DNA of 64,000 bases from Cephalotus follicularis (lineage: Eukaryota; Streptophyta; Magnoliopsida; Oxalidales; Cephalotaceae): assembly GCA_001972305.1 (NCBI GenBank), contig BDDD01005258.1, positions 1 to 64,000 on the forward strand. Direction: 5' to 3'. The notes under the pieces are model-generated. The model made no database searches. It was not told the DNA's origin and saw nothing but the letters and a program-made list of their open reading frames with translations. The translations under genes were made by a program, and so were the position numbers. Numbering within the stretch: the first letter of the stretch is position 1; each line of letters begins with the position of its first letter. Of the stretch, positions 1-62,995 are shown piece by piece.

Positions 1-994
1 ACGTCCACTTTCTCAAGAACCCCTTGAGATTCCACTAGGTACCACTAGCAACCTTTGATTTTCGGCTTACGGGTGCAAATCAAAGCAAACCACCTTACAC
101 TTGATTTTGGGTTCCGGGTGCAAATCAATGAAACACCTTACAAGGGTTCACTCCCCTCTATTCTCACCAAGGGTTTTAACACCCTTTTTACAAAGAAGGA
201 TTTGTAGAGATAATTTGTGTTTACAATAACCTCTCAAAGGTTGGATATGAAAATGATAGCTTAGTTACAAGCTTTGGATATTGATTTGAAAGATGTAGAA
301 TAGCTCTTGTGTTGCTTGGAAGAAGTGTGTATTTTCTTGTTATCTCTTGTTGTGTCACTTGTGTAAAGATACCACATTCTTCCTTATATAGAGATCCTCC
401 AACGGATCTATTTTTAAGCAATCAGACCAAATCCAGTCGGCTGGATTTTCCTTGCAGTCGGCTGGAGAAATGTTGTGCATTTGTAATTATAGCCGTTGAA
501 GAGAGGCAGTCGGCTGGATGGACTGGGAAGTCAACCGGATGCCTTGGCAGTCGACTGATGCTCTGTTCCAGTCGGCTGTCTGAGCTAGAAATTGGATTTC
601 AGAAGCTACTGGTAGAATTATGCACCTCTTGGCAGTCGGCTGGAAAGTCTTGGCAGTCGACTGGATTGTCACGACAGTCGACTGGAGCTCTGAGGCAGTC
701 GGTTGGCTGGAGTGCAAATGCAGGTTCTGGGTTTGTTTGAAGGTCCAGTCGGCTAGTCATCCTTAGGCAGTCGACTACACAACCTCAACAGTCGGCTGGA
801 CATCAATGGCAGTCGACTGGATTGCCTATTTCTGCAATTTTACACCTTTGCATTACTTTCAACATACAATCAAGTGAGTATATGTGTTTGTAACATATCA
901 AAACATGCATACAAGTATTCATTGTTTGTTACTTGTTTGTTAATCATCGAAACATAACCTTTAACACATTTAAAGGGGTGGTAAAAAGACAACA
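1..994 (-). mobile_element. 3' LTR of SIRE-type copia element CA (cut by window edge)
   Basis: Read on the minus strand, the LTR begins TGTTGTC at 994, directly after a polypurine tract of the form AAAAAGGGGGAGAT, the layout typical of SIRE/Maximus copia elements. It runs leftward off the window, so its end and target duplication are not visible. About 175 bp in from its start lies a dense palindrome array (433-820). No coding capacity is seen; short ORFs here are chance. The homologous LTR of C0 (4709-5074) starts the same way but carries a different palindrome. Confidence 0.8.
433..820. repeat. GTCGAC palindrome array, CCAGTCGACTGG flavour
   Basis: About 13 copies of the 12-bp palindrome CCAGTCGACTGG or one-step variants (GTCGGC, GTCGAC, TTGG ends) start at 433, 454, 506, 547, 568, 632, 653, 674, 695, 744, 767, 788 and 809. 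Seven neighbouring starts are exactly 21 bp apart. Larger gaps (41, 52, 64) are near multiples of a helical turn. Bases between copies are not conserved, so this is not an ordinary tandem repeat. Function is unknown; a helically phased protein-binding array is inferred. Confidence 0.9.
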
Positions 995-1011
995 ATCTCC
1001 CCCTTTTTGAT
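995..1011 (-). other. Polypurine tract of CA
   Basis: On the minus strand this reads TCAAAAAGGGGGAGAT immediately before the LTR start TGTTG. This is the plus-strand priming site expected for copia elements and fixes the orientation of CA as minus. Confidence 0.85.
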
Positions 1012-1592
1012 GATTGAAAAAACAAGCCTAATATTGCATGATTTTGACATTTAACTTACTGAAATTAACTCAACTACAGATTATCAAGTCTAAGCATTTG
1101 TCCAAGTGATTTAGCAACCAATCTCCCCCTTTTTGTATGCATAGTTTCAAAAAGACAATATAAAATCAATGTATACCTAAGCAATTTACCAATGCAATAC
1201 TCAATTTTACCAATGTAATACCAATCTATCAATACCAATCTATCAATGCAATACCAATAATCATCTCCCCCTTTTTGTCAAACAACAAAAAGTTCAAAGA
1301 AGCTCCCCCTTAATCACAACACATATTTAAGTTGTTAACAATGTGCTTGAGTATCAAAAATATGTTTTTAGAGAAGGCATACACAAATTCAATATGTGGA
1401 GAGAAAATGAAGTAATGGCAAGCGTAAACTCAATCATTTCATCGACACACTAAAAACTTCGTTACATAAATAACAATGCAAATTCATTACATAAACGTCA
1501 AAGTCATCTTACAATAGAAAATCAAAACACAAATTCTTTAGCAAGTTCATCACACATTACAAAAAGAAAATATGATATGCATAGAATGTTGC
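1012..1592 (-). other. Non-coding 3' region of CA
   Basis: T/C-rich stretch between the ORF at 1593-2690 and the polypurine tract. It contains several extra copies of the CTCCCCCTTTTTG motif (about 1123, 1264, 1302), i.e. repeated polypurine-like tracts on the minus strand, as also seen in C0. No ORF of note. Confidence 0.6.
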
Positions 1593-2690
1593 TCAAGATG
1601 ATCCGGGAGGTGGTTGTTGAGGGAAGGCATTTTGGAACATTTGGATCACTTGGGCCATTTGCGCGTCTTGCGAATCTAGGCGATCATAAATTTGATCCAC
1701 CCTTCCTTGAATGTATTCCATCTTCGCTTGTAGCGACTCCAAGGTTGGCCGACTACTTCCACTTCCGCTTCCTCCAACACTTGGCCTCACTTCGAATCTA
1801 TCTCCGTCATCATCATCTTCTTCTTCTTCCCCGACATCTCTCTCAACATCTACAACCGGTTCTCTCACCGGTGCTCTTCCTGCAGCTTGTATCTTCACCC
1901 ATAGACCATCCTCAAACTTGATATTACAATTCCTTAAACCGGCTTTATTGATCAATTGTTTGGATTTTGGTTTGATATTGTGTTCATCGTTAAGGTCAAT
2001 GTCTAGGGCGGCTAAAATCCTACTTAGAAGCATAGGATACGGGAGGTGATGGGGTCTAGATAAAATATGGTTAACAATAAGGTATGGGAGATTGACAAGG
2101 GTCCCATTCTTTATGCAAGCTACTAATTTTAGGTCTCGCTCGGATGGGAGGGTATGCGAGCCTTCTCTTGGCAACAAAGTGTTGGTAACTAGCAATAAAA
2201 GAATACGAGTTGCTATGGGCAAATGGCTACTAGTGACGGTCATAATAGGGTTGACATTAGACCGTTCTAAGAAAATTTCAAATGCATCGGATTTTTCGAT
2301 ATCATTAAAGTGTGTGATACCGGTGCATGGAATTCCTAGGATTTCACCTATGAATTCAGGGGTTATTTCAACAGCAACCCCAAGAACAAAAGATTTAGCA
2401 ACACAATTGGAGGATTTCTCAAGGTTAGCATAAAAAAGTTTCACTAACCTAGGGTAAATTGGGTGAGATGAACACAAATAATCAAACCATCCTAATTGTT
2501 CAAGCCATGGTCTAATGGAAGCAATATTGGAAGTTAAAATCTCCATATCTAACCATTTCTCATGATGTAATTTGACTGAAATTAAAGTAAAGTTATACCT
2601 ATCCTCATTTTCCTTGGAGAGAAATAAGTCACCATCATAGTTTGAGCTTCCTTGCTTGGTTCCCGCACTCTTTCTCTTTCTTGATGCCAT
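1593..2690 (-). CDS. Putative plant transposon protein (Transposase_32-like), 365 aa
   Basis: Intact ORF, the only long undamaged one in the window. The N-terminus is basic (MASRKRKSAGTK). Residues about 45-230 resemble the domain catalogued as putative plant transposon protein (PF20167, from memory): WFDYL, HPIYPRLVKLFYANL, a GEILGIP-like motif and a later LPYLIVNHIL helix. Next comes an acidic stretch (EEEEDDDDGD, about 290) and a C-terminal coiled coil (about 315-350: LESLQAKMEYIQGRVDQIYD) ending in a PQQPPPGSS tail. Function is unknown; such proteins are usually found in plant retroelements. It sits between a gag remnant and the polypurine tract of CA, where pol would be expected. A TATA box lies about 90 bp upstream, and the 5' leader is CT-rich like a plant mRNA leader. 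Start chosen as the first ATG; its context is weak at -3 but has G at +4. Confidence 0.75.
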   Translation of the reverse strand: MASRKRKSAGTKQGSSNYDGDLFLSKENEDRYNFTLISVKLHHEKWLDMEILTSNIASIRPWLEQLGWFDYLCSSHPIYPRLVKLFYANLEKSSNCVAKSFVLGVAVEITPEFIGEILGIPCTGITHFNDIEKSDAFEIFLERSNVNPIMTVTSSHLPIATRILLLLVTNTLLPREGSHTLPSERDLKLVACIKNGTLVNLPYLIVNHILSRPHHLPYPMLLSRILAALDIDLNDEHNIKPKSKQLINKAGLRNCNIKFEDGLWVKIQAAGRAPVREPVVDVERDVGEEEEDDDDGDRFEVRPSVGGSGSGSSRPTLESLQAKMEYIQGRVDQIYDRLDSQDAQMAQVIQMFQNAFPQQPPPGSS

Positions 2691-2779
2691 AGATGATAGA
2701 GGGACGAATTTTGGCGATTTTTAGGGTTTTGGTAGAGTTTTGGGGAGAGAGATAGTGAGAGAGGGAAAAGAAATCGCGT

Positions 2780-2786
2780 TTTTATA
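2780..2786 (-). promoter_or_regulatory. Likely TATA box of the 1593-2690 ORF
   Basis: On the minus strand TATAAAA lies 90 bp before the ATG, followed by a pyrimidine-rich leader (CTCTCACTATCTCTCTCC) typical of plant 5' UTRs. Three to four GTCGAC palindromes lie directly upstream (2805-2877). This suggests the ORF has its own promoter. Confidence 0.55.
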
Positions 2787-2804
2787 AAACTGATATGTGT
2801 AAAA

Positions 2805-2877
2805 ACAGTCGACTGGTGTCATTGGACAGTCGACTGGATCACAGACAGTCGACTGGACCAGGATACCAGTCGGCTGG
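2805..2877. repeat. GTCGAC palindrome array upstream of the ORF promoter
   Basis: Four copies (ACAGTCGACTGG at 2805, 2826, 2845; CCAGTCGGCTGG at 2866), spaced 21, 19 and 21 bp. The same flavour as the CA LTR array but internal to the element and about 20-90 bp upstream of the TATA box, in enhancer position. Confidence 0.85.
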
Positions 2878-4708: not shown

Positions 4709-5074
4709 GGTATTGCCTTAAGCGTCGGCGCTTAGGTTATCGTTAGGAGTTAAATTTGAATTTTCTCGATTTGTCTGTTGGAGCTTTGATCTTGGAGTCG
4801 ACCGTTCGCATAAAGCGCTGAGGCTTTAATCTTAAGCATCGCCGCTTTGAGTACTTCAACTAATTTTGCGCTCCACTGGTTTTAACGGCAGACTTGCGCT
4901 TCTCAGGCGTCGACTTTTTGGCATAAAGCGCTGACGCTTTGATTGTGACCGTCGGCGCTTTGCTCTGTTTCTGCACTTCTTAATTTTGTTTATTTCTTTT
5001 CTTGCACAGAAAGTAGCAAAGTTAAATGCAAATTTGTAATCATTAAAACTTAGGATTAAGACTAAAAGTCAACA
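4709..5074 (-). mobile_element. Partial 3' LTR of SIRE-type copia element C0
   Basis: Minus-strand LTR starting TGTTGACTT at 5074 after its polypurine tract. Only the first 366 bp remain; S11 abuts at 4708/4709. Its first 100 bp resemble the CA LTR, but the palindromes that follow are of the AAGCGTCGACGCTT flavour instead of CAGTCGACTG. Confidence 0.75.
4720..4963. repeat. GTCGAC palindrome array, AAGCGTCGACGCTT flavour
   Basis: Copies at about 4720 (AAGCGTCGGCGCTT), 4813, 4834, 4926 and 4947, plus weaker ones near 4796 and 4905. The pairs 4813/4834 and 4926/4947 are 21 bp apart. It occupies the same distance from the LTR start as the CAGTCGACTG array of element CA. Confidence 0.85.
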
Positions 5075-6949: not shown

Positions 6950-7596
6950 TCAGGATCTGCATTGCAGATAAGTGTGGTGGAAGCTCTAGCCAACTCCTGG
7001 CACATAGGACCACCCCGTAGCCAGTGATGTTTCCTATCACTCGACTAACGACAATAACATAGACAAACAATTCAATCAATTCAATAGCAATATCACATAT
7101 ATCTATAATATGCAATATAATAGTTGTTTTCTTTTAGAAACATTTAACATTCAGTAACCGTACCTCTCATTGGAGGAAACGGTATTCAATACAGTAGTTG
7201 TGCCTCTCAATGGAGGAAAATTAGTAAATCATTAGATAATAAGTTTTCATTTGAAAACAATAAGAAGAAAATCCATATTTGTGCTTATAGCAATAGTTGG
7301 TTCAATCATTAATATTAAGTGTAACAATAGTATTTAAGAACACTTAATAGCTATACAGTATGTATAACAGCATCATTAAATAGTAGCGGAACAATCACAA
7401 TTCAAGGGTTCAACAAGATGTTAGCCTACCCTAGTCATTCTTGCACAACTCTTACAAGGAGTGCATACGTTGTTTACTTTCTGTAATATAACTACCTAAG
7501 GCCAGGATTGATTGTTTCAATCATCTCATGTGGAAGCCAGGGTAATTACACACAATTTAAAGCCTAACAGTAGCTAATATCAATAATCTGTCACTT

Positions 7597-7713
7597 AACA
7601 ATCGGTTGTTCATAAGAATAGCCGGCTATTTTCATTAGGCAGTCGACTGTTTGTCCTTAACAGTCGACTGTTTACATTGAGCAGTCGACTGTTAAGTTAA
7701 ACAGTCGACTATT
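7597..7713. repeat. GTCGAC palindrome array in S9 (distal position)
   Basis: Six copies of AACAGTCGACTGTT or variants; the shared C of the core lies at 7599, 7619, 7640, 7661, 7682 and 7702, giving steps of 20, 21, 21, 21, 20 bp. Spacer sequences differ. Confidence 0.9.
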
Positions 7714-8599
7714 TTTGTCCAGAAACGTCAGGCAGCAATTTCATAAAAACAGGGTATGCATGTACAACTTCCAAATCCAACTGAAATAATAACATGCAAT
7801 CATATAGAAATTATCCATACATGCTATACATATCATATCTTCTAAAACATGTCAATACCCCTACCTCAATCGCTATCCCAGAATCAAATTGGATTGATTC
7901 TTCTCTTTGAATTCCCAGTTCACTCAACACCAACAATCCAGAAGTTTAATGCTATAGGTGCATGTTAACAGGTATATGCAACGAAAATCAGTAACCGAAT
8001 ATGGTTGACTAACTACCATTTCAACACTTAAATTAAACCAGTAACTTACCAGGGATTCCTAAGCCTCAAACTTTCTTTTGAGTTCCAACCTTATATCCAC
8101 TCAACTCCAATTCCAGCAATTAACTATATGTGTGTTAACAGAAGATATATATAGTACACAATCAGTACATATATACCTATTGAACGATTATAACACATTT
8201 GAAATCATACAGAAGCTTACCTCTCAAATTCAAGCTTCTAACTCCACTTGGAACCCCAACTAACATGCACAATCAATACAGTGGTTGAACTCTTCTCTCC
8301 AAACGATTACTAACCTCTTTGAACACTCATGCAACACTGATATATAGAACTCGTGGTTCCAGTGACCAATTCTAGTCATAACTCAAGTCTCCCACTCATC
8401 TTCTCTCTCTCACATGCACCTCTTCTCACTCTTTTCTCTTCTGTTTTGCAGGTTGTAGGTCTGCAGATGGAATAGAGCACATGCAAGACACCACCCTTGC
8501 ATGTTGCAAACCTGGTGGCACGCAACTATCAAGCAAGACACGTTTAGGATGCTACTGCTCTGTTTTACAAGCCATGAAAGGACACCTGTCTGTGCCAGA

Positions 8600-8681
8600 C
8601 CAGTCGAATGTTGCCCTGTGACAGTCGACTGTCACTCCTCGAATCAAAACAGTCGGCTGTTACCCTGTGACAGTCGGCTGT
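8600..8681. repeat. GTCGAC palindrome array in S9 (proximal position)
   Basis: Four copies (8601, 8622, 8650, 8671), steps 21, 28, 21. Mix of GTCGAC and GTCGGC cores. Confidence 0.85.
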
Positions 8682-8855
8682 TTGAGGCTGGTTTTGGTTT
8701 GTTAAGTGTATTTCACCACATTTGCATTTCAGATCAAACCCAACAATTCAATAACCCTAATTTATGTAGTAATTGAACATTTCTAAATTCAATATAATGC
8801 ATATTTTATTCATCAAGAGTACAATATACACGAATTGTAAATTGCGGTTATTACA

Positions 8856-9258: not shown

Positions 9259-9471
9259 TGTAATAACCGCAATTTTAAAATTTGATGTATATTGTACAAT
9301 TAATTAATAAAATATACATTGAATTAAAATGTAATGCTTAATTACCCTTTTGATTGAGCTAATTGTTACTATTGGTTTGTATTGATGGTTTAATTGCATG
9401 GCATTTGGACTGAATTGAACTAATTTGAAAGTTGGTTGAATAAAGTTATGAAATCAGGAATTTTGACGCTT

Positions 9472-9553
9472 GACAGTCGATTGTCGCAGAGAAACAGTTG
9501 ACTGGTCAACTCGTAAAGGGACAGTCGACTGTTTGAGGGAAACAGTCGACTGG
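9472..9553. repeat. GTCGAC palindrome array, 5' LTR proximal
   Basis: Cores at 9474, 9495, 9522 and 9543 (steps 21, 27, 21), with an extra GGTCAAC half-site near 9504. The same 21-27-21 pattern recurs in the 3' LTR at 54093-54171. Confidence 0.85.
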
Positions 9554-10273
9554 GAGAGCACAGACAGGTGTCTGTGCATGGCAATTGAAAACAGAGCAAG
9601 GCGTGAATCATTGGACAGGTGTTAGGCAACAAATGAACATGACACAAACGTGTCACCAACTGCTCAAAATGGACGACTTAGTGTCTTTTGTGTGTCCTGA
9701 GCTCTGTAAACTGTAAAGAAGAAACAAAACAGTGAGTTAGAGAGAAGGAAGAAAATGTTGAAACTTTGAGTTAGTGGAATCAGAGGAAATTCAGAAATGA
9801 ATTCCTTTATAACAGCTATTGCATGAGTGAATTAAGAGTTTTAGAATGTTTGAAAGAAAGGAAACCATCTGTTACTGTGAGCATACTGGAATTGGAGTCA
9901 AAGTTGAGTTTGGAAGCTTAAGGTTCGATTGGTAAGCTACTGGTTTAAATTCAGTTGCTGATTATGGTTAAACAGTTATGTATAGCTACTGATTTAGTAT
10001 GCATACCTACTGTTAACATGCACATATAGTTAAATTCTAGAGACTGTTGAAGTTGATTGGAATTGGTGGAGTATTGAAACTAAAAGAGAAGAATCACTCA
10101 ATTGATTCTGGGATAGCGAATTGAGGTAGGATTTATAATATGATTTTGAAAAAATAGCATGCATATCGTGTTGAGATGGTTTGTGTTTGATTGCATGTTG
10201 AATTGGAGTGAATTGAAATATGATAAGCATGCTCTGTTTTACTGTTTTCTTCTGGAAACTGATATTCTGGGGA

Positions 10274-10410
10274 AACATCCGACTGTTCATGATAACAGTC
10301 GACTACTCAATGTATAAAGCAGACTGTTCAGGATTAACAGTCGACTAATTGTTAGGGGCAGTTGACTGTGCAAGGAAATAGCCGAAGTATAATAGAAACA
10401 GTCGACTGTT
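10274..10410. repeat. GTCGAC palindrome array, 5' LTR distal
   Basis: About seven copies, several degraded, with cores at 10276, 10296, 10320, 10338, 10359, 10379 and 10399; steps mostly 20-21 bp. Confidence 0.8.
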
Positions 10411-10983
10411 AGGGGATATTTTCGACACTGAAGTGTACTGTTTAGGCTAAATCGCCAGTAATTACTCTAGCTTCCATAAGGGATGAATCCAATAATCAAC
10501 CCCTGCTAAATTGCATGTAATTACACTAGCTTACCGAAGTGTTTTACTGTTTCCTCAAAATGAGATTTTATCGAACTGTTTTACTTTCTCAAAACGAGAC
10601 TACTATTATATTACATTATATATGTAATAATCTATATTGCACTATACTGTTTGTGATTGATAGTTTCTATGGTCTTGTGATCGGAGTGCATCACAGACTA
10701 CAGAGGTGAGCCTATGTGCCAGGAGTTGGCTAGAGCTTATAAACAAAATTTATCTGCAACACAGATCGTGAGTGTTAATTGCACGCCAAGTGCCGGCAAT
10801 AGTGTTTACCTTTTCTATCATCATCAGAGTGCATGGTGGTAGTTAGGTGGTGCATCGTCTGAGCTAGGATGTAGCGATAGATGACACCACTAGTGGTCTT
10901 CGAACAACCTGATTGTTTGTACCCTTGTATGGTATGATTGATATCTGGCTGATTGTAGCCATTTGGCATGGTTGCTTATATAT

Positions 10984-10987
10984 ATTG

Positions 10988-11028
<41 letters not shown>

Positions 11029-11029
11029 C
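10984..11029. repeat. CA/TA microsatellite in the 5' LTR
   Basis: A CA run passing into a TA run. The middle LTR (about 39960) and 3' LTR (about 55941) have shorter, mostly TA versions at the same place, so the tract has changed length since the copies separated. Confidence 0.85.
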
Positions 11030-11441
11030 TGTTTTCAAAATATAAACTGTCATGCATGATTGCATCTTTATATTCATCTTCATGCATATTTTCTACTTAA
11101 CCGAGTGAGGACAAAGGCTAATACATGCAATTTCATATTAAAATAGAGATTGGAGGTGTGCTGCTGAAGCTATCCTTGGAGGCTTCTATTTTAAGGTTGT
11201 TAAAGTTGTACTGTAATAAAGTCATACCCTGTATGTTATATTTACATTCTCAATATGTATTATATAGCTTTTGCTTGTGCTGTATAAAGCATAAGCATGT
11301 AGTATGGGCTACATGTGTATGCTACCACGAATAATCCAGTATAATGTTAATCATTCCGTAAAGTTTTAAATTTTCAGTTATTGATAAATACTGGATTAAA
11401 TGTTAACCATGTGTTGAAATGAAAACGGGGTGTGACAAGCA

Positions 11442-13688: not shown

Positions 13689-13805
13689 AGATTTGATGCA
13701 TATATATATAGTTAGAAACACGTTTATTGATGATATGTTTGAATTATTTGGGTTTAATCCGTGAGACGAAAGCATGGGATGCAATTTGAGATTCGTGCAG
13801 TCACG

Positions 13806-13845
13806 AAAGAGTCGACGCTTTGGAGAAAAGCGTTGACCTCTACGC
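13806..13845. repeat. Start of the GTCGAC array in the C1 leader
   Basis: GAGTCGACGCTTTGG and AAAGCGTTGACC, 20-22 bp apart, between PBS and gag of C1. The array is cut by solo LTR S1 and continues at 16779-17020. Confidence 0.75.
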
Positions 13846-16768: not shown

Positions 16769-16778
16769 AAGACGCGTA

Positions 16779-17020
16779 AAGCGTTGACGCCTGTGAGAAA
16801 AGCGTTGATGCTTAGGCGCTAAAGCACAGACGCTTTTGAGAAAAGCGTTGACACTTATGGCGTTAAAACTGCACCTTCGTTAGACAAAAGCGTCAACGCT
16901 TGAGGAAGCGTCGACGCTTACGTTGTTGAGAGCTAAGGTTTTCGATGCTTTCGTAGTAAAGCGCAAGGCGTCGATGCTTAACGCATGGACGTCGACGCTT
17001 TCTATTGAAGCGTCGACGCT
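16779..17020. repeat. GTCGAC palindrome array in the C1 leader, AAGCGTCGACGCTT flavour
   Basis: Cores at 16781, 16802, 16824, 16845, 16890, 16908, 16968, 16989 and 17010; steps 21, 22, 21, 45, 18, 60, 21, 21. Many copies have the central CG changed to TG or CA, the mark of methyl-cytosine decay. Unlike the other elements, here the array is in the transcribed leader, not the LTR. Confidence 0.9.
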
Positions 17021-22757: not shown

Positions 22758-22760
22758 ATG

Positions 22761-28460: not shown

Positions 28461-28851
28461 ACAGACAGATTACAAAACCTGACTTTTTGTCATTTTGTGA
28501 GTAAAATTCCTTAATTATGGACATGTGGCAGGCCAGGGGAGAATGATTTGAGATATTATCAAATGATCTAACAAGTGTCACCACTTGGATTGGCAGAATT
28601 TTAGGCACATGGGCTGCTAAGAGAGAGTTGAGTCATGTCAGAGAGGGAGAAGACTTGTGTAATGCCCGAGATTTTGCACAATGTAATATTTCAATTTTAT
28701 TGAAATGCTATTTAAGGGAATGGCATGATTTTTGACATAGGTGATGCTTTCCAAAAACCTAAGGGTTAGATTTTGGAAGAGGGAATGATTGGGATAATAA
28801 AGAAATTCTAAATGATGCAATTAGGGGCAAAACGATGTAGTTTTGGGATAA

Positions 28852-36384: not shown

Positions 36385-36559
36385 GACTAATCGTTAGGGA
36401 CAGTCAACTGTGCAAGGAAACAATTGACTTATAATAGAAACAATCGACTGTAAGGGGATATTTTCGACACTGAAGTGTACTGTTTAGGCTAAATCGCCTG
36501 TAATTACACTAGCTTCCATAAGGGATGAATCCAATAATCAACCCATGCTATGTGTAATC
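36385..36559 (+). mobile_element. Middle LTR, left remnant
   Basis: Starts at GACTAATCGTTAGGG, equivalent to 54962 of the 3' LTR. Carries decayed palindromes (36400-36455). Interrupted at 36559 by S8. Confidence 0.85.
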
Positions 36560-37740: not shown

Positions 37741-38110
37741 ATGGCGTCAACGTGTTCTTTAGGCGTCGACGTCTATCTTAGGCGTCAACACATTTCCACT
37801 TTGGCGTTAACGTAAACTAGTGTGCAACAGGATAACATCAACTATTCCTAAGGCGTTAACGTGTATCCTTGGAGTTGATGCGTTAAGGTAGGTACCTTAA
37901 GCATTAACCTTTTCTTTAGCATCGATGCGATAAGGTAGGGACCTTACGCGTCAACGTTACCTCTAGGCGTCGACGTTCTCGAAGACAGTAGCTTTAAACG
38001 TCAACGTTATCCTTCCTTGGCGTCAACGAAAATCAAATGCAAACAGGTAAACAGTCGATCATATCAGTAAGGAGTTAAGGTGTACAACTGTGGCATCGAC
38101 GAAAATCAAA
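37741..38110. repeat. GTCGAC palindrome array in S8 (distal), GGCGTCGACG flavour
   Basis: Copies at 37744, 37763, 37782, 37804 (steps 19, 19, 22) and more to about 38100. Many are GTCAAC or GTTAAC, i.e. CG decay. Confidence 0.8.
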
Positions 38111-38559
38111 AGCAAATAGGCAATACAGTCCAAAATCAACCTAAGCACGCATGGATTCAACAGTTTAGCATCAACATGCAAGCACAGCTGAGCTACCATA
38201 ACACAATATACATGCAATATCCTCATATACATGTCATAAACCCTACCTCTGATTCCAAGTTAGGAATCGAAGTCCACATCTTCAAGTCTCACTGACCAGT
38301 AGCTTTTAAGCTCCCAGGTTCGGTTCGGCAGTTCCAATCCAAGCTTAGTTCCACTATTGGTTCGAGCTTCCAAGCATTCAAACTTTAGTCCAGCGCAACT
38401 AGTGGAGAGTATGGTTCTCTCCTTTTCTCTCTTTGTTTCCCTCTATTTTTCTCTACCAGGTGGTTCTCGAAGAAGGAGAAGAAGAGAGTGTCTTATAAAG
38501 GAGTCTCTCTCTCCTCTCACCCGCATTCATGGCACTAGGCGCCTCTCTCTCTCTCTTTC

Positions 38560-38960
38560 CCCATGTCGACGTGACACTCGCCAGTCCCATCTCTCTCTTT
38601 TCTCTGCCACTACAGGCATGGGGAACTGGCAAATATGCCTTTCATGCGTCGTCTGTCAGTGTTTTGTCTTATTCTACCGATAGTTTTACCATCGACATCA
38701 ACCTTAGGCGTTGACGCATTGACCATTCTTCTTGGTGCTAACAGGCTCCGCGAACCGCGTTAACGCTTACTTCTTAGTTCCCATCCATGGCGTCAATGTC
38801 ATCATTTGACATCAATGCCTTAAGGCAAGGAGCCTTAAGCGCGACTCCCTTGCTTCTTGGTGTCAACTCCATTACTTGGCGTTGACGCTAAAAGCATCTC
38901 CCAATCCTGTCTAGTTCATGGTGTCGACGTCCTTCGTTGGCGTCGATGTATATGCATCAT
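38560..38960. repeat. GTCGAC palindrome array in S8 (proximal)
   Basis: Sites such as ATGTCGACGTGAC (38563), GGCGTTGACGC (38707), GGTGTCGACGTCC (38920) and GGCGTCGATG (38939). Looser and more decayed than the distal array. Confidence 0.7.
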
Positions 38961-39147
38961 ATTTTGTCCCTTATGTTATTTCAAATAACTTCCAATTTTA
39001 TTCCAATTTAGTCCCTTCATTCCTTTAATTCAACAACAATAATTGGTTAGAATCAGGGGATAATTAAACATAAATTTCAATTCAATGTATAATTTATTTA
39101 TCATGGTACAATATACACTAAATCGAAATTGCGGTTATTACATAATC

Positions 39148-40383: not shown

Positions 40384-40387
40384 AGCA

Positions 40388-43538: not shown

Positions 43539-43670
43539 TGTAATACCCCGATTCGTTGCTAGTATGTTTGTTGATAAATGTTGCGCTTTTGTCATGTGTC
43601 ATATGTTATGTTTCGTCGGACCATTTGAAATTTGTTTTTGAAAACTCTATTATGTTTTATTCTGGGCGTT

Positions 43671-43820
43671 AAGCGTCGACGCCCTTGCCAAAACCGTCGA
43701 TGCTTTCGTGTTGAAAATTTATCGTTTCATCCATGTTCTGATAGACGTCGACGCCTTGCTATGACATCGACGCTTTAGGGCTTAAGCGCTGACTCTTTGA
43801 CGAAATCGGCGACGCTTTAG
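43671..43820. repeat. GTCGAC palindrome array in S6 (proximal), AAGCGTCGACGCC flavour
   Basis: Cores at 43673, 43694, 43744, 43764, 43786 and 43806; close steps 21, 20, 22, 20. Confidence 0.85.
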
Positions 43821-44388
43821 TCGTTTTCTATATTTGTTTTGGATGGTGGCTCAGTTTTGGGAAAGCTTGATTCTTTCCATAATTCGGATATGTGTTTTCC
43901 TAAATTGTTTACCGAATCCTCTGCATAAGGAAAGCCTTAATCAACACGATTTTGACAATTAAAACAACACCTTTTCTCTTTATTTTAAAACCCTATCTAC
44001 ATTGTTTCTCAAACTACACAACCACCGTTTTCTACATTATTCTTCACTGTTTTCTTGTCATCTTGAGGTATGTCTTGATAATGGTTTTGTTTTCGTTTTA
44101 TATTTCTGTTTAGCTAATTAGGAAGCATAAATAATATTCAAAACTCTACTGAAAACTGTTCTAAATCATATTTGTTGAGAAACCATGTTTTAAAGGTTGT
44201 TATGGCTATGTTTAATCTGTAAAATCATGTTTGATACATTTAAATTGTTACACTAGTGTTTACAATAGAGGAAATCATGTTTTACTACTTGCATATTACT
44301 GTTTTATTGGTTCATGTTTAAGAAAATTGGAATTTTGTTCATTGTGTCAACTGATTCTATCGATGCATTTTGCATGTTTTAACGCTAA

Positions 44389-44662
44389 GCGTCGACTCTT
44401 TCGATTTAACCATTGATGCTTGGGCAAACATACATAATCGTTTTACTCTTTTCATGGGTTGGAAGCGTCGATTGTTTCAGTATTTTTGTTGACGCTTAAG
44501 GCTTAACCGTCGACGCTTTTCTTTGGGCGTCGACGCTTACATAGTGTTTTGGTCATGCATTGTTTCGACGCTTTGGCATGTTTTATCAACGTTTTGTTCT
44601 TAAGGTGTCGATGCTTTCATTGTAAACTTCGAAGCTTTAAGCGTAAATGTCGACGCTTATTT
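44389..44662. repeat. GTCGAC palindrome array in S6 (distal), AAGCGTCGACGCTT flavour
   Basis: Copies such as TAAGCGTCGACTCTTT (44387), AACCGTCGACGCTTTT (44505), GGGCGTCGACGCTTA (44525) and TGTCGACGCTTA (44648), about 850-1120 bp from the LTR start. In the related LTR S10 the same interval carries the CAGTCGACTG flavour. Confidence 0.8.
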
Positions 44663-44859
44663 CCTCTACAGTTTGTGTGTGTCGTCTTTTATGTGTCTGT
44701 CTTTTGGTGATGTGATATTGTTGGATTGATCTATCTAGGTTTAGATTAAACCTGTGGTGGAGGTTAAGATGATTCAGTAGTATGATTTTGATTCATTTTG
44801 GGATTATTTAGTTTTGAGCGGCCAAGGTACGGATAACTCCCTTCTTGATAAATTCCCCC

Positions 44860-53878: not shown

Positions 53879-54090
53879 TGTAATAACCGCAATTTTAAAT
53901 TTCGATGTATATTGTACAATTAATGAATAAAATATACATTGAATTAAAATGTAATGCTTAATTGCCTTTTGATTGAGCTAATTGTTACTATTGCTTTTTA
54001 TTGAGGGTTTAATTGCATGGCATTTGGACTGAATTGATCTAATTTGAAAGTTGGTTGAATAAAGTTATGAAATCAAGAATTTTGACGCTT

Positions 54091-54172
54091 GACAGTCGAC
54101 TATCGTAGAGAAAAAGTCGACTGGTCGACTCATAAAGGGACAGTCGACTGTTAGAGGGAAACAGTCAACTGG
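54091..54172. repeat. GTCGAC palindrome array, 3' LTR proximal
   Basis: Cores at 54093, 54114, 54141 and 54162: steps 21, 27, 21, as in the 5' LTR. Confidence 0.85.
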
Positions 54173-54872
54173 GAGAGCTCAGACAGGTGTCTGTGCATGG
54201 CGATTGAAAACAGAGCAAGGCGTGAATCATTGGACAGTTGTTAGGCGACAAATGAACGTGACACAAACGTGTCACCAGCTGCTCACAATGGACGACTTAG
54301 TGTCTTCTGTGTGTCCTGAGCTCTGTAAATTGTAAAGAAGAAACAAAACAGTGAGTTAGAGAGAAGGAATAAAATGTTGAAACTTTGAGTTAATGGAATC
54401 AGAGGAAATTCGGAAATGAATTCCTCTATAACAGCTATTGCATAAGTGAATCAAGAATGTTAGAATGTTTGAAAGAAAGGAAACCATCTGTTACTGTGAG
54501 CATACTGGAATTGCAGTCAAAGTTGAGTTTGGAAGCTTGAGGTTCGATTGGTAAGCTACTGGTTTAAATTCAGTTGCTAATTATGGTTAAACAGTTATGT
54601 ATACCTACTGTTAAAATGCACATATAGTTAAATTTTTGAGACTGTTGAAGTTGATTGGAATTGGTGGAGTATTGAAACTCAAAGAGAAGAATCACTCAAT
54701 TGATTCTGGGATAGCGAATTGAGGTAGGATTTATGTTAAGATTCTGAAATTATAGCATGAATATTGTGTTGAGATGGTTGGAGTTTAATTGCATGTTGAA
54801 TTGGAGTGAATTAAAATGTGAAAAGCATGCTCTGTTTTACTGTTTTCTTCTGGAAACTGATATTATAGGGAA

Positions 54873-55020
54873 ACAGCCGACTGTTCATGATTACAGTCGA
54901 CTACTCAATGTATACATCAGACTGTTCAGGATTAACAATCGACTCCTCAAGGTAAACAGTTGACTAATCGTTAGGGACAACCGACTGTGCATGGAAATAG
55001 CTGACTTATAATAGAAAAGT
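54873..55020. repeat. GTCGAC palindrome array, 3' LTR distal
   Basis: AACAGCCGACTGTT, ACAGTCGACTAC, ACAATCGACTCC, ACAGTTGACTAA, ACAACCGACTG and weaker copies, about 20-21 bp apart. Confidence 0.8.
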
Positions 55021-56375
55021 GTACTGTTAGGGGATATTTTTGACACTGAAGTGTACTGTTTAGGCTAAATAGCCTGTAATTACACTAGCTTCCATAAGGG
55101 ATGAATCCAATAAACAACCATGGCTATGTGTAATCAAGATACCAGAATTGAAAGACTTATGCATTCCTTGTGTGATTGGCATAAATTGATATTGATTGTA
55201 CTGTTTATTGTTTCATCCTTGAATCGTTAATGTTACTGTTATGCAATTATATATTGCTACTGCTACTGTTATTGATAGTTTATATCTATCAAAGTGTTTT
55301 GTATTCAAGGATTTTAATTATCGAATGCTATATGCATAATTAAAGGTTTTCAGCTACTGTTTTTAAAAGAAAACCTAGTGTTATTGTACTGATTTCTCCA
55401 AGTGAGAACTACTGAAGTGTTTTATTGTTTTCTTAGATGAAAACTCAGTGTACTATTACTATTCCCTCAAAACGGGAACTTACTGAAGTGTTTTACTATT
55501 TTCTCAAAATGAGATTTTATCGAAATGTTTTACTTTCTCAAAATGAGACTACTATTATATTACGTTATATATGTAATAATCTATATTGTACTGTACTATT
55601 TGTGATTGATAGTTTATGATGGTCTTGTGATCGGAGTGCATCACGTACTACAGAGGTGAGCGTATGTGCCAGGAGTTATCTAGAGCTTATACACCAAATT
55701 TATCTGCAACACATATCGTAAATGTTAATTGCCCGCAAAGTGCCAGCAATAGTGTTTACCTTTTCTATCATCATCGGAGTGCATGGTGCTAGTTAGGTGG
55801 TGCATCGTATGAGCTAGGAGGTAGCGATAGATGACACCCACTAGTGGTCTTTGGACAACCTGATTGTTTGTACCCTTGTGCTGTATGATTGATATCTGAC
55901 TGATTGTAGCCACTTGTCATGGTTGCTTATATATATTGGCATATATATATATATATATATACTGTTTTCAAAATATAAACTGTCATGCATGATTGCATCT
56001 TTATATTCATCTTCTTGCATATTTCCTACTTAGCCGAGTGAGGACAAAGACTAATACTTACAATTTCAGATTAACAAGGAGATTGGAGGTGTGCTGTTGA
56101 AGCTATACTTGGAGGCTTCTATTTTAAGGTTGTTAAAGTTGTACTGTAATAAAGTCATACCCTGTATGTTATATTTACATTCTCAATATGTATTATATAA
56201 CTTTTACTTGTATTGTATAAAGCTTAAGTATGTAGTATGGGTTACATGTGTATGCTACCTCGAATAATCCAGTATAATGTTAATGATTCCGCAAAGTTTT
56301 AAATTTTTAGTTATTGATAAATACTGGATTAAATGTTAACCATGTGTTAAAATGAAAAAGGGGTGTGACAAGTTT

Positions 56376-58695: not shown

Positions 58696-58890
58696 ATTAA
58701 TTTATTATTGTTTGAAGAATTAAATTTATACCGCAAGTTCACGGTTGTACAATAATAGTTCGAACACTAGGAAACAAGTTTAAACTACTTTTAATTATTT
58801 AACCTAGGTGAAGTATGCAAAGATGAAGGCAAATTACGCTAACTATCCTAAACAAGAAGAAATAATCTAAATTACTACAAAATTGATTTA

Positions 58891-58968
58891 AAGCGTCGAC
58901 AATATCTCACAAAGCGTCAGCGGTAGACTAGCAAAGCGTTGACGGTATACTTAAAGGCGTCGACGGTT
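58891..58968. repeat. GTCGAC palindrome array in E (left)
   Basis: GCGTCGACAA (58893), GCGTCAGCGG (58914), GCGTTGACGG (58936) and GCGTCGACGG (58957): steps 21, 22, 21. Confidence 0.85.
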
Positions 58969-59146
58969 TGTGACACAAAATCGATACTTACCAGGAAATC
59001 ATGCAGAGTTTATTGAATTAATCAAAACAAGAAATATACTGAATAAAATATGTAAGACTAAATTGGTTTTAGGATATAGAAATTAACCATATATTATATT
59101 GAGAACTCAAACTTACTTTGAAAGATCAAACCTTGATAACCAACGG

Positions 59147-59395: not shown

Positions 59396-61869
59396 TCTAA
59401 CACCCCCCGTTTTAGGATCGGGATGTCACACTAAACTAACTTACAAAATCATATTAAAATGGATAGATCTTTATTCCAAACCAATAATTCAATAATCTGA
59501 AATGTTACCATAACAAATATATCCTTTATTCAAATCGAAGTCAATAATCCATAAAGATCAGAAACATTACTATAAACTCAAATCCAAAGTAATATTTAAC
59601 TCAACACTAAACCTAAAGTCTCCAAATGAACCATAATCAACTAAAATATAAATGATTAAAATGCTAACTACTCCTCTGATATTCCGTGGATCACTCATCA
59701 CACTTGCCCCTGATGTCCCTGATAACCTGTCGCATGAAAAACAAAAACGCGGCTGTGTAAACCTCAGTACGGATATGGAATCAATAAAATAAATGGTAAA
59801 ACTTAAAACGGACAGATTACCAAAATCTTTCCAAACAACGTATGCATATAGATTCAAAATCTTTATAAGGTAGATATGAATTTTTGAACATAATATACAT
59901 ATAGATTCATAAACTTTCATAAGATAGATAAAGTTTTCATTCATATCAAATACTAAACTTTTCCAAACCAATGTTTCATACTGAGAGATGCACATACATA
60001 ACTAACATATACATATGCAAGGGATTCCCAGGGATCCACATGCCTAATGGAATGACGTGTACAACACTACACAATCAATTCCCATACATACCAAACATAT
60101 CCTAGGGCCAACCCATACGCCTATATCATGCATATATCACACTCAGGTGACAATCATAATTGGATCCAAATCCTCCACAGGATATCAAAGAGAGACGTCG
60201 TAGACTGATCACATCCCTACGGATGGTGTCATGTTTTCATGCCAGACACACAACATGCCTATGGTACCCTCATAGGTGGTTATATTCTCAGTATTTAACG
60301 ATTTCAAAATAATGATGTTCTCAAAAATCATTTCAAACATATAGGGTTTCCACATATGAACCCAAGTTTCTTAAAAAATAGTATATCAAATGATAATAGC
60401 TTATCAAATAACAATTACATACTTGTTTCGTCAAACATACATATATATTCAAATTCATGCTCACTTAATCTTGCAAAACAGTTCGAAAAGAGATGACAAT
60501 AAATGAAATTCATATTTTGTTCATAAACATAAAATTGAATTTTTACTATAATAAAATCAATAGGAGATATCCAAGCATGAAAAATCCATACCTTATGCAA
60601 TCACCAAAATAATCTCAAGAGAAGATCAGCAATTCCTTAGACCGCTCCTTGATTGTTATAGTTATCTAAAAGAAACCATATAATCCTTATAAGGACTTAA
60701 AACTATTTGGGAAGCATCAAATCAGAACATAATAGAGCCTTAAAGAGGGAGAAGAAATGTTTCTGCTGGAATTTACTCCAACCAGTCGACTGGATTTCGA
60801 CTGTGAAAGGTACCAGTCGACTAGAGCAGGGCTTCAGTCGACCACTGAACCTGATCAGCTGACTGTTCATCTTGGCCTGCCGACTACTCAACAAGGACTG
60901 AAGGTTTATAGATTTTTCCCCAGTACAGTCGATTGTTTACACAAAGCAGCCGACTATTCATGCAAAGCAGTTTACTGTTTATGAAAGCAGCCGATTGTTC
61001 TGCTTAAATTCGGCACTGGTGCCTAACGATTTCTATAAAATTTTCATTTCATAACTAGATACCAGACTATCAGAGGGTGACAACAAGATTAAATGAACCT
61101 ATAGGGTGTCAAAAAAAACAAAAGAACATAGAGGAACTAAAGAATCTATGCAGGTTGTGTTCATGCTAAGAGAGAGGGATGAAATTCTCAACCGCTAAAG
61201 ATATACTCTGTTTTCCATCAAATTATTCAATACCAGCTATCAAAACTAGATTACACGACACATAAAAGATGTCCGAATTCATCAAAAGACACAGCAACAG
61301 GAGCTGTGCAAAAACGGGGCTCAAAAGGGAGAGAGGTATCTCAAACTGTCATCTTTAGATTGTTTAATTCAAAACAAACGAATTCCTTAATCCGAAATAT
61401 CAAAGGCAAACCTGATTGATGCAGAAATCGTGGAAGGAAGCAAGAAATCCCGAGGCTTGCAGTTGTCGTTTGCCAGGCGAGAGAGAAGAAACGTGAAGGA
61501 AGAGAGATACGGGCGAGATAGAAAGAGAGAGAGTGGGAGAGAAAAAAAGAAAAGAAAATTTGGGAGAGGGAGATAGGAGAGGCGGCTGACTTAATGGAAA
61601 AAAAAGAGGGTTTTCTCTTATTTTTAAAGGCACAAATTGGTTTTCTTAAGAAAATAAGGAAAAAGGTGATAATTGTTTTTAAAAAAAAGTTTTATTTATT
61701 CTCTTACATATTTACTAATCAAATATCCAACGGTCCAAGGCTAAAATCAAATAGCCCGACCCAAGACAAATAAAACACAGGCAGTCCACATACCAATTTA
61801 AATAGACAGCCCACATGCACTAGCTTAAAAAGTCCAAAAAAATTTTATATGAAAAAACGGGGTATCACA
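59396..61869 (-). mobile_element. S10: solo gypsy LTR in E
   Basis: Minus strand TGTGATACCCCG...GGGGGGTGTTAGA, 2474 bp, with perfect GTTTG duplications (59391-59395, 61870-61874). The left terminus reads TCTAACACC, one change from the expected TGTAACACC. Same family as S6 (shared block with CACTTGCCCCTGATG / CATCACACTTGCC). ORFs are chance. Confidence 0.85.
60781..61000. repeat. GTCGAC palindrome array in S10, CAGTCGACTG flavour
   Basis: Cores at 60783, 60814, 60835, 60856, 60877, 60926, 60947, 60968 and 60988; close steps 21, 21, 21, 21, 21, 20, with one extra half-turn copy at 60794. About 870-1090 bp from the LTR start, the position of the other flavour in S6. Confidence 0.9.
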
Positions 61870-62201
61870 GTTTGAAGTCAGAAATTGAAGAACAAATCAA
61901 AAGTTCAAATATTTTTATTAATGGAGATTCTCAGTACATCTATGTGTTGTTTTAATCCTAAAAACCTTGAAAGTTTAGCAAGAAAACATTGAAATAAAAA
62001 CTGTAAAAACTAAAGGAAGGAAGAAAGGTACAACTCTATATAAAAGTCAATCTTGTTTTTGGCCTCTCTCTTTTCCTTTTATACCGACAGACATGAGTAA
62101 AAACAGGAAAGAAAGTTTAACCTAATTATGCTACTTAATGCAATAATTACAATCCGAATAAAACTGTAAAACTTTCCATATTTTTTAGCCTGATACATGC
62201 T

Positions 62202-62333
62202 AAGTGTCGACTTGAATGTGCTAGGCGTTGACGCTTTAATAATGTAAAGGCAAGCTAAGGTGCGCTTTACGCGTTGACTTGAATATTCAGCATAGTTAAG
62301 CATCGACGGTATCAAGCAAGGAATCGACGCTTT
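62202..62333. repeat. GTCGAC palindrome array in E (right)
   Basis: GTGTCGACTT (62204), GCGTTGACGC (62225), GCGTTGACTT (62271), GCATCGACGG (62300) and GAATCGACGC (62321): steps 21, 46, 29, 21. A further pair lies at 62727 and 62748 (21 bp). Confidence 0.8.
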
Positions 62334-62339
62334 GAATGT

Positions 62340-62720
62340 GAAATCAGACTTCATGTCGCCAAGGTAGACCTCATTTTAGTGAAGGCAGGGCTTGAATAGT
62401 TTGTCAGCAAACCTCCTGAGCAAGCTGTAGACTAGCATACTATCCATATACATAAATGCAAAGCACAACACTTGCAGACTAGCAAGCTAGCAACTAAGTA
62501 GAGATGCCGAGCAGACTTGAAATGCAGACTTGCCGAGCACCACTTTGCAGAGCATGTCTGAATATAGTGGGGCAGACTTTGAGGTGTAGACTTGCGGTAT
62601 TGGTAATGTGGCAGAGAAAACTATGAAATTCCATTTAGCGGAGCAGAGAAGTTGGTAAGACTAAAGCACACTTGATAAAAAGGAGCAAACTTGAAGAGCA
62701 TGTAGTCTGGTGCAAGGCAA
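62340..62720. other. GCAGACTTG-rich stretch of E
   Basis: Words GCAGACTTG, TTGCCGAGCA and TAGACTTGC recur irregularly; no ORF. Confidence 0.5.
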
Positions 62721-62995
62721 CTCTTAAGCGTCGATGCTTTCTTTAAAAGCATCGTCGCTTTAAGTGAACCCGTCGGTGCTTTGATGCCAATTCTGTAGAA
62801 CTGAAGATTTAGTCTCTTAAATTTTTACCAACTTGGACTAGTATTAATGCACTTTGATCATTTCGCCCCTGTACCTGAAAATCAATACAATACAACTACA
62901 GTAATATGTTCCAAACATAAAACATAATGATTAAATCCTTAAAAACAACATATTTTTATGCTAAACAATTGTATTGCAGTATTGTACCATCCCTA

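What the first reader, a model, noticed from the sequence alone, without database searches (positions are those of the whole stretch)
433..62785. GTCGAC-centred palindromes in 21-bp register across unrelated retrotransposons
Clusters of 10-14 bp palindromes around GTCGAC occur in SIRE-type copia LTRs (433-820, 4720-4963), a SIRE-derivative promoter (2805-2877), an Angela/Tork-like copia leader (16779-17020), several gypsy LTR families (e.g. 7597-7713, 9472-9553, 28134-28460, 43671-43820, 60781-61000) and a non-coding element (58891-58968). Of 63 close neighbouring pairs counted by hand, about 38 are exactly 21 bp apart and most others 18-23. Spacers are not conserved, which excludes simple tandem duplication. 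21 bp is two DNA turns, so a protein array on one helix face is the natural inference. GTCGAC and its variant GCCGAC resemble the DRE/CRT core bound by DREB/CBF factors (known family), but the real binder is unknown. S1 has related sites out of register; S4, S5 and S7 show none, so it is a shared but not universal module.
Basis: partly seen in the sequence, partly recalled or inferred. Interest (0 to 1): 0.92.

Follow-up and report, generated by a model that had tools for sequence, protein, structure and literature searches.

The report
Shared 21-bp palindrome arrays in retrotransposons
Unrelated jumping genes in a pitcher-plant genome carry the same short mirror-symmetric DNA word, strung out about every 21 letters in their non-coding control regions, which suggests that many of them are switched on through the same, still unknown, DNA-binding protein or proteins.

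Summary
In the window GTCGAC is 11.6-fold over-represented and neighbouring sites sit 19-21 bp apart (44 pairs at 19-22 bp, 9.2 expected). Twenty other 10-kb stretches repeat it (131 pairs, 27.5 expected; arrays in 17 of 20). Genome-wide (1.58 Gb) pairs at exactly 21 bp number 105,145 against 1,224 for the reversed control. Spacers are not conserved.

New here: sites carry one of two flank flavours (A: CA-GTCGAC-TG; C: GC/AC-GTCGAC-GC/GT). No array mixes them (0 of 83 fully flanked sites), the arrays of one element agree, yet both flavours occur in Sirevirus copia and in gypsy LTRs. The two arms of a site covary; neighbouring sites do not.

Best reading: control arrays for a symmetric DNA-binding protein. 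They work like the palindromic motifs of Sirevirus LTRs (PMC2829016), but lack their CGG-CCG core and also occur in gypsy LTRs. The binder is unknown; neither DREB/CBF nor bZIP is shown. 'One helix face' is too simple: one family uses 19 bp and three-turn spacings are not enriched. One species, no functional data.

The parts
433..820 (-). Sire1 LTR array, flavour A, 13 sites with at most one mismatch, mostly 21 bp apart
384..393 (-). TATA box about 45 bp downstream (element sense) of the Sire1 LTR array
   Evidence: read; TATATA at 385-390
995..1275 (-). Three copies of AAAAGGGGGAG (polypurine tracts) upstream of the Sire1 3' LTR, which starts about 994 on the minus strand; multiple tracts are a Sirevirus hallmark according to PMC2829016
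1593..2690 (-). Intact 365-aa ORF of family PF20167, standing where Sireviruses keep ENV (position only; no homology to ENV tested)
2805..2877 (-). ENV-position array of Sire1, flavour A, 4 sites (gaps 21, 19, 21)
2777..2788 (-). TATA-like box between this array and the ORF
4715..4965 (-). Truncated Sire2 LTR, flavour C, few sites, partly in register; polypurine tract at 5087(-)
7560..8855 (-). Tdiv gypsy LTR (start 8855 on the minus strand) with A arrays at 8600-8680 and 7640-7712
9259..11437 (+). T1a gypsy LTR followed by a primer binding site at 11442; A arrays at 9470-9560 and 10295-10430
13805..13840 (+). First part of the copia leader array (after the primer binding site at 13676), 2 sites, flavour not fully shown
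16775..17020 (+). Second part of the copia leader array, flavour C, 7 sites; split from the first by the solo LTR 13875-16768 (target duplication AAGAC)
28155..28455 (.). Weak C cluster, mostly out of register
28658..31235 (+). T4 solo gypsy LTR (target duplication ACTTG); arrays at 28850-29000 and 29760-30310, flavour C, often as GACGTCGACGTC
36400..36470 (+). Remnant of array II of a third T1 LTR copy (36385-36559 with 39143-40385)
36560..39142 (-). T2 solo gypsy LTR (target duplication GATTA); C arrays at 38560-38950 and 37740-38100, mostly 19-bp spacing
43539..44690 (+). T6 gypsy LTR (from its start; end not found); C arrays at 43670-43820 and 44340-44690
53879..56370 (+). T1b gypsy LTR after a polypurine tract and a pol region; A arrays at 54090-54170 and 54870-54970
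58890..58970 (.). Weak C cluster, 4 sites, one 21-bp gap
60780..60960 (.). T3 A array, 7 sites; element orientation not resolved
62200..62430 (.). Weak C-type cluster in a non-coding stretch, two 21-bp gaps

Best explanation
The arrays are transcription-control modules (promoter or enhancer arrays) of LTR retrotransposons. Each GTCGAC-centred site of about 10-16 bp is bound by a symmetric, probably dimeric protein, and neighbouring sites are kept about two DNA turns apart (19-22 bp, mode 21) so that bound dimers can sit side by side. The two flank flavours point to two binders or two versions of one, and an element is tuned to one flavour throughout. Shown: enrichment, spacing, unconserved spacers, flavour segregation, arm covariation, position next to TATA boxes in Sire1, extent through the genome. 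Inferred: that a protein binds, that it is a dimer, that the host supplies it and that it activates transcription.
For: Excess and spacing in the window, in 20 other stretches and genome-wide (176,266 pairs at 19-23 bp against 1,828 reversed control; 105,145 against 1,224 at exactly 21 bp). Spacers near chance while unselected flanks +-1/+-2 are conserved. Flavours: 36 A and 47 C sites, none mixed within an array; 3 of 154 in the other stretches against 44 expected; 158 mixed-flavour neighbour pairs genome-wide. Same-site arms complementary beyond shuffling within arrays (165 of 366 against 146.9, p 0.005; 360 of 726 against 328.9, none of 2000), neighbouring sites not. Sire1 has the same array before two different promoters, LTR and ENV-position ORF. 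Four or five gypsy LTRs keep two arrays at like offsets. Sites are more conserved than the rest between T1 and its diverged relative (0.71-0.73 against 0.58-0.59).
Against: No binding, expression or chromatin data. Variants fall in the 5' half more often than in the 3' half in element sense (42 against 16, p 0.0009; 7 of 8 families, p 0.07), which a plain homodimer does not predict. At +-2 the arms show no excess pairing in the window. Spacing is not one value (19 bp in T2). Between the two T1 copies decamers are less conserved (0.88) than the rest (0.94), which I read as decay after insertion. Positions -5 to -3 are fairly conserved in the other stretches (0.57-0.70). Site relatedness by descent is not modelled.
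Confidence: 0.7

Rival explanations
1. The binder is an AP2/ERF factor of the DREB/CBF kind that reads [A/G][C/T]CGAC as a monomer; the palindrome is a by-product.
For: GCCGAC lies in element sense in 12 of 12 cases in Sire1, Sire2 and Tdiv; ATCGAC exceeds GTCGAT 7 to 2 in T4; the 3' half CGAC is the stricter half.
Against: ATCGAC/GTCGAT is 1 to 3 in T6 and 2 to 2 in T2; T3 may have GCCGAC in the opposite sense, 2 of 2. Paired arms and symmetric flavours are not expected of a monomer. That barley CBFs accept GTCGAC is recalled; the search listed no paper that holds GTCGAC.
Confidence: 0.13
2. The binder is a bZIP dimer of the FD kind; the elements would then be transcribed in meristem or vein cells at flowering.
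For: Palindrome of the right size; FD binds a GTCGAC motif in the FT promoter by ChIP and mutated reporter (PMC13360168, passages).
Against: ACGT-core bZIP sites do not replace GTCGAC in register: CACGTG 0 against 0.3, GACGTC 4 against 1.1; 82 of 97 GACGTC copies merely overlap GTCGAC-like sites.
Confidence: 0.13
3. The arrays act as RNA or cruciform structures: neighbouring palindromes pair into stems, or feed small-RNA silencing as proposed for maize Sirevirus palindromes.
For: Seven array RNAs fold better than shuffles, z -1.9 to -6.8. PMC5311732 (passages) calls the maize Sirevirus palindrome region a small-RNA mapping hotspot.
Against: Any repeated palindrome folds well. Flanks of neighbouring sites do not covary (60 of 153 against 61.7, p 0.65; 149 of 315 against 139.3, p 0.10), whereas arms of one site do. 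A structural role does not ask for a constant GTCGAC core.
Confidence: 0.1
4. The binder is encoded by an element, like the anti-silencing protein VANC of Arabidopsis VANDAL elements, and other families parasitise it.
For: VANC motifs lie in non-coding tandem repeats that diverge quickly, and VANC6 also acts on an unrelated element with the motif (PMC5735166, passages). Sire1 has an intact extra ORF (PF20167) with its own array.
Against: No DNA-binding domain recognised; the fold prediction of the ORF failed (pLDDT 42). The same core in families of both superfamilies fits a host factor as well.
Confidence: 0.12
5. The arrays are old minisatellites that arose by tandem duplication and drifted, without function.
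For: Tandem Repeats Finder reports 19-21-bp units in several arrays; a preferred distance without three-turn spacings also fits a duplicated unit.
Against: Neutral decay would spread over all positions, but flanks +-1/+-2 stay 68-84% identical while most of the spacer is at chance. It does not explain one core in unrelated elements, the flavours, or arm covariation. Duplication as origin, followed by selection, is not excluded.
Confidence: 0.05

Closest known systems
Palindromic repeated motifs (RM boxes) of Sirevirus LTRs (Bousios et al. 2010, PMC2829016; passages and section 9 seen)
   Same: Many palindromes in the LTR before a TATA box, more before the ENV region, CpG-rich; flank sequence around the boxes diverged; the Vitis box CGGTCGACCG contains GTCGAC.
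   Different: Here the CGG-CCG signature is missing, the arrays also occur in gypsy LTRs and in one copia leader, a 19-22-bp register and two flank flavours are seen. The paper reports the boxes as absent from classic copia elements; I saw nothing in it about gypsy elements or about spacing.
VANC target motifs of VANDAL transposons in Arabidopsis (PMC5735166, passages; PMC10398659, abstract)
   Same: Short motif repeated in non-coding regions of mobile elements, fast turnover, shared with an unrelated element.
   Different: YAGTATTAY is not palindromic, VANDALs are DNA transposons, the binder is element-encoded; no binder is known here.
GTCGAC site of the bZIP factor FD in the FT promoter (PMC13360168, passages)
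   Same: Same hexamer, bound in a plant promoter.
   Different: In the passages seen it is one site in one host promoter, next to ACGT-type sites; the arrays here show no ACGT-type alternates.
DRE/CRT element (RCCGAC) of DREB/CBF factors (recalled)
   Same: GCCGAC occurs as a variant, mostly in one orientation.
   Different: The main core is the palindrome GTCGAC with paired arms.

Membership tests
Sirevirus RM boxes | Palindrome with dyad symmetry, many copies per LTR (at least 8 per element in the paper) | tested here: met
   Sire1: 13 sites in the LTR and 4 in the second array. Other elements vary, some with fewer than 8.
Sirevirus RM boxes | Cluster shortly before a TATA box in the LTR | tested here: met
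   Met for Sire1 (about 45 bp). Not shown for the gypsy LTRs, where no clear TATA box follows the arrays I could orient.
Sirevirus RM boxes | Further copies upstream of ENV | tested here: inconclusive
   Array 2805-2877 before the ORF 1593-2690(-), which stands at the ENV position but was not shown to be ENV.
Sirevirus RM boxes | CGG-CCG core signature (12 of the 13 motifs listed; Tnd-1 lacks it) | tested here: not met
   Core is GTCGAC with A..T or C..G flanks.
Sirevirus RM boxes | Found in Sireviruses only (reported absent from classic copia) | tested here: not met
   Arrays in five gypsy LTR families, Tdiv and T1 counted as one; the copia leader element was not placed on a tree.
DREB/CBF (DRE/CRT) site | RCCGAC core (recalled) | tested here: not met
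   GTCGAC dominates: 58 exact copies against 7 GCCGAC and 16 GTCGGC in the window.
DREB/CBF (DRE/CRT) site | Bound by a DREB/CBF protein | not testable with these tools
   No binding data.
bZIP (FD-type) site | ACGT-core sites accepted as well | tested here: not met
   No in-register excess of CACGTG; GACGTC 4 against 1.1.
bZIP (FD-type) site | Bound by FD or a relative | not testable with these tools
   Only the published FT case.
VANC-type anti-silencing target | Motif arrays in non-coding regions of mobile elements, turning over quickly | tested here: met
   T1 and T2 share LTR ends but not the array-bearing middle, and differ in flavour.
VANC-type anti-silencing target | Element-encoded protein binds the motif and removes DNA methylation | not testable with these tools
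   No methylation data; fold prediction of the one intact extra ORF unusable.

The most novel reading that the evidence does not exclude
Many LTR retrotransposons of this plant, of both superfamilies, have converged on one control code: two symmetric GTCGAC site flavours, each read by its own protein (paralogous host factors or captured ones), arrayed at two helical turns, with elements switching flavour wholesale by replacing the whole regulatory stretch of the LTR. With over 100,000 site pairs this would be among the largest expansions of one regulatory site in a plant genome.
Probability: 0.35. Interest if true: 0.88.

Novelty: new variant of a known kind. Interest (0 to 1): 0.75.

Why it matters
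Why some plant retrotransposons stay expressible is usually studied one element at a time. Here unrelated families share a site, a spacing and a flank code, so one pull-down or DAP-seq experiment could identify a protein on which much of a genome's mobile DNA depends. It widens a motif class described for Sireviruses to gypsy elements, and the flavour rule (unmixed within arrays, concordant within an element, crossing lineages) is a sharp prediction about binder specificity.

Tried and rejected
A general helical-phase rule: lags 10-11, 31-32 and 52-53 show no excess. Pairing between neighbouring sites as the selected feature: not supported. ACGT-core sites as alternates: not found. Recent tandem duplication: disfavoured by unconserved spacers. 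Other species: an IMG/VR scan for two 10-bp A sites at 21 bp found 0; a protein search with one reading frame through the Sire1 array found nothing at E <= 1; the genome tool holds no relatives of this genome. The array was therefore tested in no other species. Fold of the PF20167 ORF (with 38 of the 120 listed homologues): mean pLDDT 42, not used. Literature: ten searches; one search found 0 papers; in the listings I saw no title or abstract start reporting GTCGAC arrays or a 21-bp palindrome register in gypsy LTRs, but listings are capped and most subscription papers are not held. A family of 'LTR start' matches (23965, 32700, 59430, minus strand) showed no array of this kind in its own first part, except the weak cluster at 58.9 kb. 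Left out of counts: 24 of 236 sites as duplicated copies; 39 of 122 sites without a full A..T or C..G flank pair from the mixing test, among them 8 with one A-type and one C-type side; T3 and three clusters of unknown orientation from the polarity count; T1b and the 36-kb remnant from the 19 arrays; 3 of 44 arrays with the same gaps in the same stretch. The array count has no shuffled control.


Full report
WHAT WAS CHECKED. The finding says that GTCGAC-centred palindromes recur at about 21 bp in several unrelated retrotransposons. GTCGAC occurs 58 times in 64 kb against 4.8 in first-order Markov shuffles (maximum 14 in 200) and is the most enriched of the 64 palindromic hexamers, 11.6-fold over the dinucleotide expectation. 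With one mismatch allowed there are 236 sites (143 expected); pairs at lag 21 number 31 against 0.33 (maximum 4), with further peaks at 19, 20 and 40-42. After dropping copies of one LTR family (212 sites kept) and comparing with sites jittered by up to 40 bp, lags 19-22 hold 44 pairs against 9.2, lag 21 holds 24 against 2.3, lags 41-43 hold 20 against 6.8 and lags 61-63 hold 14 against 6.5 (p 0.0075); lags 10-11, 31-32 and 52-53 are not enriched. In the same test on all 64 palindromic hexamers GTCGAC has by far the most pairs at lags 19-21 (42 against a background of 5.1); GCGCGC ranks above it by ratio on a single pair. Of the 58 exact copies 53 lie in the 22 regions that I drew as arrays (4,378 bp, 7% of the window) and 5 outside, against 4.5 expected there; since arrays were drawn from the sites, this mainly says that the rest is at background.

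SPACERS. In the 31 lag-21 pairs (redundant copies included) identity is 68-84% at flanks +-1 and +-2, which were not used to choose sites, 42-58% just outside them, and 16-35% at -6 to -4 and +10 to +14. In 46 pairs from other stretches the downstream spacer is again low (0.28-0.39), but positions -5 to -3 are 0.57-0.70, so conservation reaches further on one side there.

FLAVOURS AND SYMMETRY. Of 122 sites in 19 arrays 36 have A..T and 47 have C..G as first flank pair, and no array contains both; the remaining 39 have incomplete or other pairs, 8 of them one A-type and one C-type side. Shuffling labels gives 27 minority sites on average and never fewer than 17 in 5000. A arrays: Sire1 LTR, Sire1 ENV-position, T1 I and II, Tdiv I and II, T3. 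C arrays: Sire2, T2 I and II, T4 I and II, T6 I and II, the copia leader and the weak clusters at 28.1, 58.9 and 62.2 kb. So flavour agrees between the arrays of one element, but both flavours occur in Sireviruses and in gypsy LTRs. Arms of one site are complementary at +-3 to +-5 more often than after shuffling within arrays (165 of 366 against 146.9, p 0.005; none at +-2); arms of neighbouring sites are not (60 of 153 against 61.7, p 0.65). In element sense single variants hit the 5' half of the site 42 times and the 3' half 16 times (p 0.0009; 7 of 8 families, p 0.07), a polarity that a plain homodimer does not predict.

ANATOMY. The window is a nest of LTR elements. Sire1 lies on the minus strand: three AAAAGGGGGAG polypurine tracts (1007, 1133, 1275), LTR from about 994 downwards, array 436-817, then a TATA box at 385-390. 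A second array (2808-2874) and a TATA-like box precede the intact ORF 1593-2690(-) of family PF20167, which stands where Sireviruses keep ENV; homology to ENV was not tested. Sire2 is a truncated LTR with C-flavour sites beside the same kind of polypurine tract. Gypsy LTRs are T1 (9259-11437 and 53879-56370), its diverged relative at 8855(-), T2 (36560-39142, minus, target duplication GATTA), T4 (28658-31235, ACTTG), T5 (13875-16768, AAGAC; few sites, out of register) and T6 (from 43539); T3, near 60.8 kb, has an unresolved orientation. Protease, reverse transcriptase, RNase H and Tf2-1-like SH3 matches mark the T1 element as Ty3/gypsy; 'Tekay-like' rests on recall of such LTRs, not on a tree. 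T1, Tdiv, T2, T4 and T6 carry array I at +136 to +572 and array II at +807 to +1643. T1 and T2 agree at the first 146 bp (68%) and over the last part (74-87% by block), but the array-bearing middle aligns at only 40-55%, so the regulatory stretch was replaced or has diverged beyond recognition, together with its flavour. The copia element with gag and integrase fragments at 18.5-20.4 kb has its C array in the leader after the primer binding site (13676); that it is not a Sirevirus rests on no Sirevirus-type tract being found there, not on a tree.

SELECTION OR DECAY. Between the two T1 copies decamers are 88% identical, spacers 91%, the rest 94%, as expected if CpG sites decay after insertion. 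Against Tdiv, decamers are 70.5% and 73.2%, spacers 58.9% and 66.7%, the rest 59.1% and 57.7%, as expected if sites were kept while the families were active; decamers were picked by their core in either copy, so part of this is choice.

OUTSIDE THE WINDOW. Homologues of the ORF point to Cephalotus follicularis: 300 proteins passed, and the 120 listed all carry that name (best 91%). For the T1 reverse transcriptase fragment the top score is a Solanum verrucosum protein at 58% identity; the next three are Cephalotus at 79-82%. The genome holding the window has 1.577 Gb in 9,746 contigs; exact pairs at lags 19-23 number 176,266 against 1,828 for the pattern read backwards, and at lag 21 105,145 against 1,224. 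In 20 stretches of 10 kb chosen by contig number and position, GTCGAC is again the top palindromic hexamer (127 against 17.8); lags 19-22 hold 131 pairs against 27.5 (maximum 43 of 1000), lag 21 60 against 6.9, lags 10-11 0 against 13.6, lags 31-32 18 against 13.7; lags 40-43 hold 40 against 27.0 (single trials reach 47) and lags 61-64 show no excess, unlike in the window. 44 arrays (my definition, no shuffled control) lie in 17 of 20 stretches; 3 of 154 fully flanked sites are in the minority flavour of their array against 44 expected (minimum 29). Same-site arm covariation repeats (360 of 726 against 328.9, none of 2000) and neighbour pairing does not (149 of 315 against 139.3, p 0.10). Mixed-flavour neighbour pairs number 158 genome-wide (85 + 73); pure A and pure C counts were not returned, but in the 20 stretches exact pairs at 19-23 bp were 13 A-A, 4 C-C, none A-C, and 11 with an incomplete flank, of 28.

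MECHANISM. The simplest account is a binding array for a symmetric protein, placed where LTR promoters and downstream or leader enhancers would be. Covariation within but not between sites, two coherent flavours and a fixed neighbour distance speak for dimers side by side. Around 184 exact sites no other palindromic hexamer takes the in-register place to a like degree (GTCGAC 78 against 3.4; next GACGTC 4 against 1.1 and AAGCTT 2 against 0); the other frequent in-register words are mostly one-mismatch variants or shifted readings of the same site. Since three turns are not favoured and T2 uses 19 bp, contact between neighbours, or an old tandem origin later kept by selection, explains the data better than helical face alone. 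Which protein binds is open: FD-type bZIP has a documented GTCGAC site (PMC13360168, passages), DREB/CBF fits part of the polarity, and an element-encoded protein of the VANC kind fits the turnover (PMC5735166, passages). RNA folding (z -1.9 to -6.8) is what repeated palindromes give in any case.

COMPARISON. The nearest known thing is the repeated palindrome of Sirevirus LTRs (PMC2829016, passages and section 9). Sire1 shares the layout (LTR array, TATA box, second array before an ORF at the ENV position). The CGG-CCG signature is not met, and arrays occur outside Sireviruses: in gypsy LTRs, about which I saw nothing in that paper, and in a copia leader, where it reports none for classic copia. 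I therefore say that these arrays work like Sirevirus boxes and are a new, broader variant, not members of that family as defined. The maize paper linking palindromes to small RNAs is not held; I saw only what PMC5311732 says of it (passages).

LIMITS. One species, no functional data, sites chosen by their core, arrays bounded by eye, descent among copies not modelled, genome counts multiplied by element copy number, other species not tested.

Noticed in passing
window 1593-2690 (-): Intact 365-aa ORF of PF20167 ('putative plant transposon protein') at the ENV position of a Sirevirus, with its own palindrome array and TATA-like box; large family, the 120 listed homologues all from Cephalotus. 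Conserved N-terminal part, acidic stretch and predicted C-terminal helix; the fold prediction is unusable.
   Followed up: partly
window 9259-56370: Three T1-type LTRs in the same orientation (9259-11437; 36385-36559 with 39143-40385; 53879-56370), the first two followed by a primer binding site, with pol or gag pieces between them: looks like a tandem of one element interrupted by nested insertions.
   Followed up: partly
window 9259-11437 and 36560-39142: T1 and T2 LTRs share their first 146 bp and their 3' part but not the array-bearing middle, and differ in flavour: wholesale change of the regulatory stretch.
   Followed up: partly
window arrays: CpG observed/expected is 1.25 in arrays and 0.55 elsewhere, although the sites carry a decay-prone CpG at their centre.
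   Followed up: no
window 9259+865, 28658+873, 39142-894, 13875+1111: AGGTAGG words recur at similar offsets in T1, T4, T2 and T5 LTRs (also Tdiv), between arrays I and II in T1, T2 and T4; they look like 5' splice sites, so array II may lie in an intron.
   Followed up: no
L009-L028 (200 kb): GACGTC is the second most enriched palindromic hexamer (80 against 17.8); together with the window 82 of 97 copies overlap GTCGAC-like sites, leaving 15 that do not.
   Followed up: partly
L011 1550 and 6303; L014 130 and 6515; L022 2547 and 4903: Pairs of arrays with identical gap series some kilobases apart in one stretch, as expected of the two LTRs of one element.
   Followed up: no
window 22259-23116: Block of overlapping minisatellites (units of about 23-60 bp) unrelated to the palindromes.
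   Followed up: no
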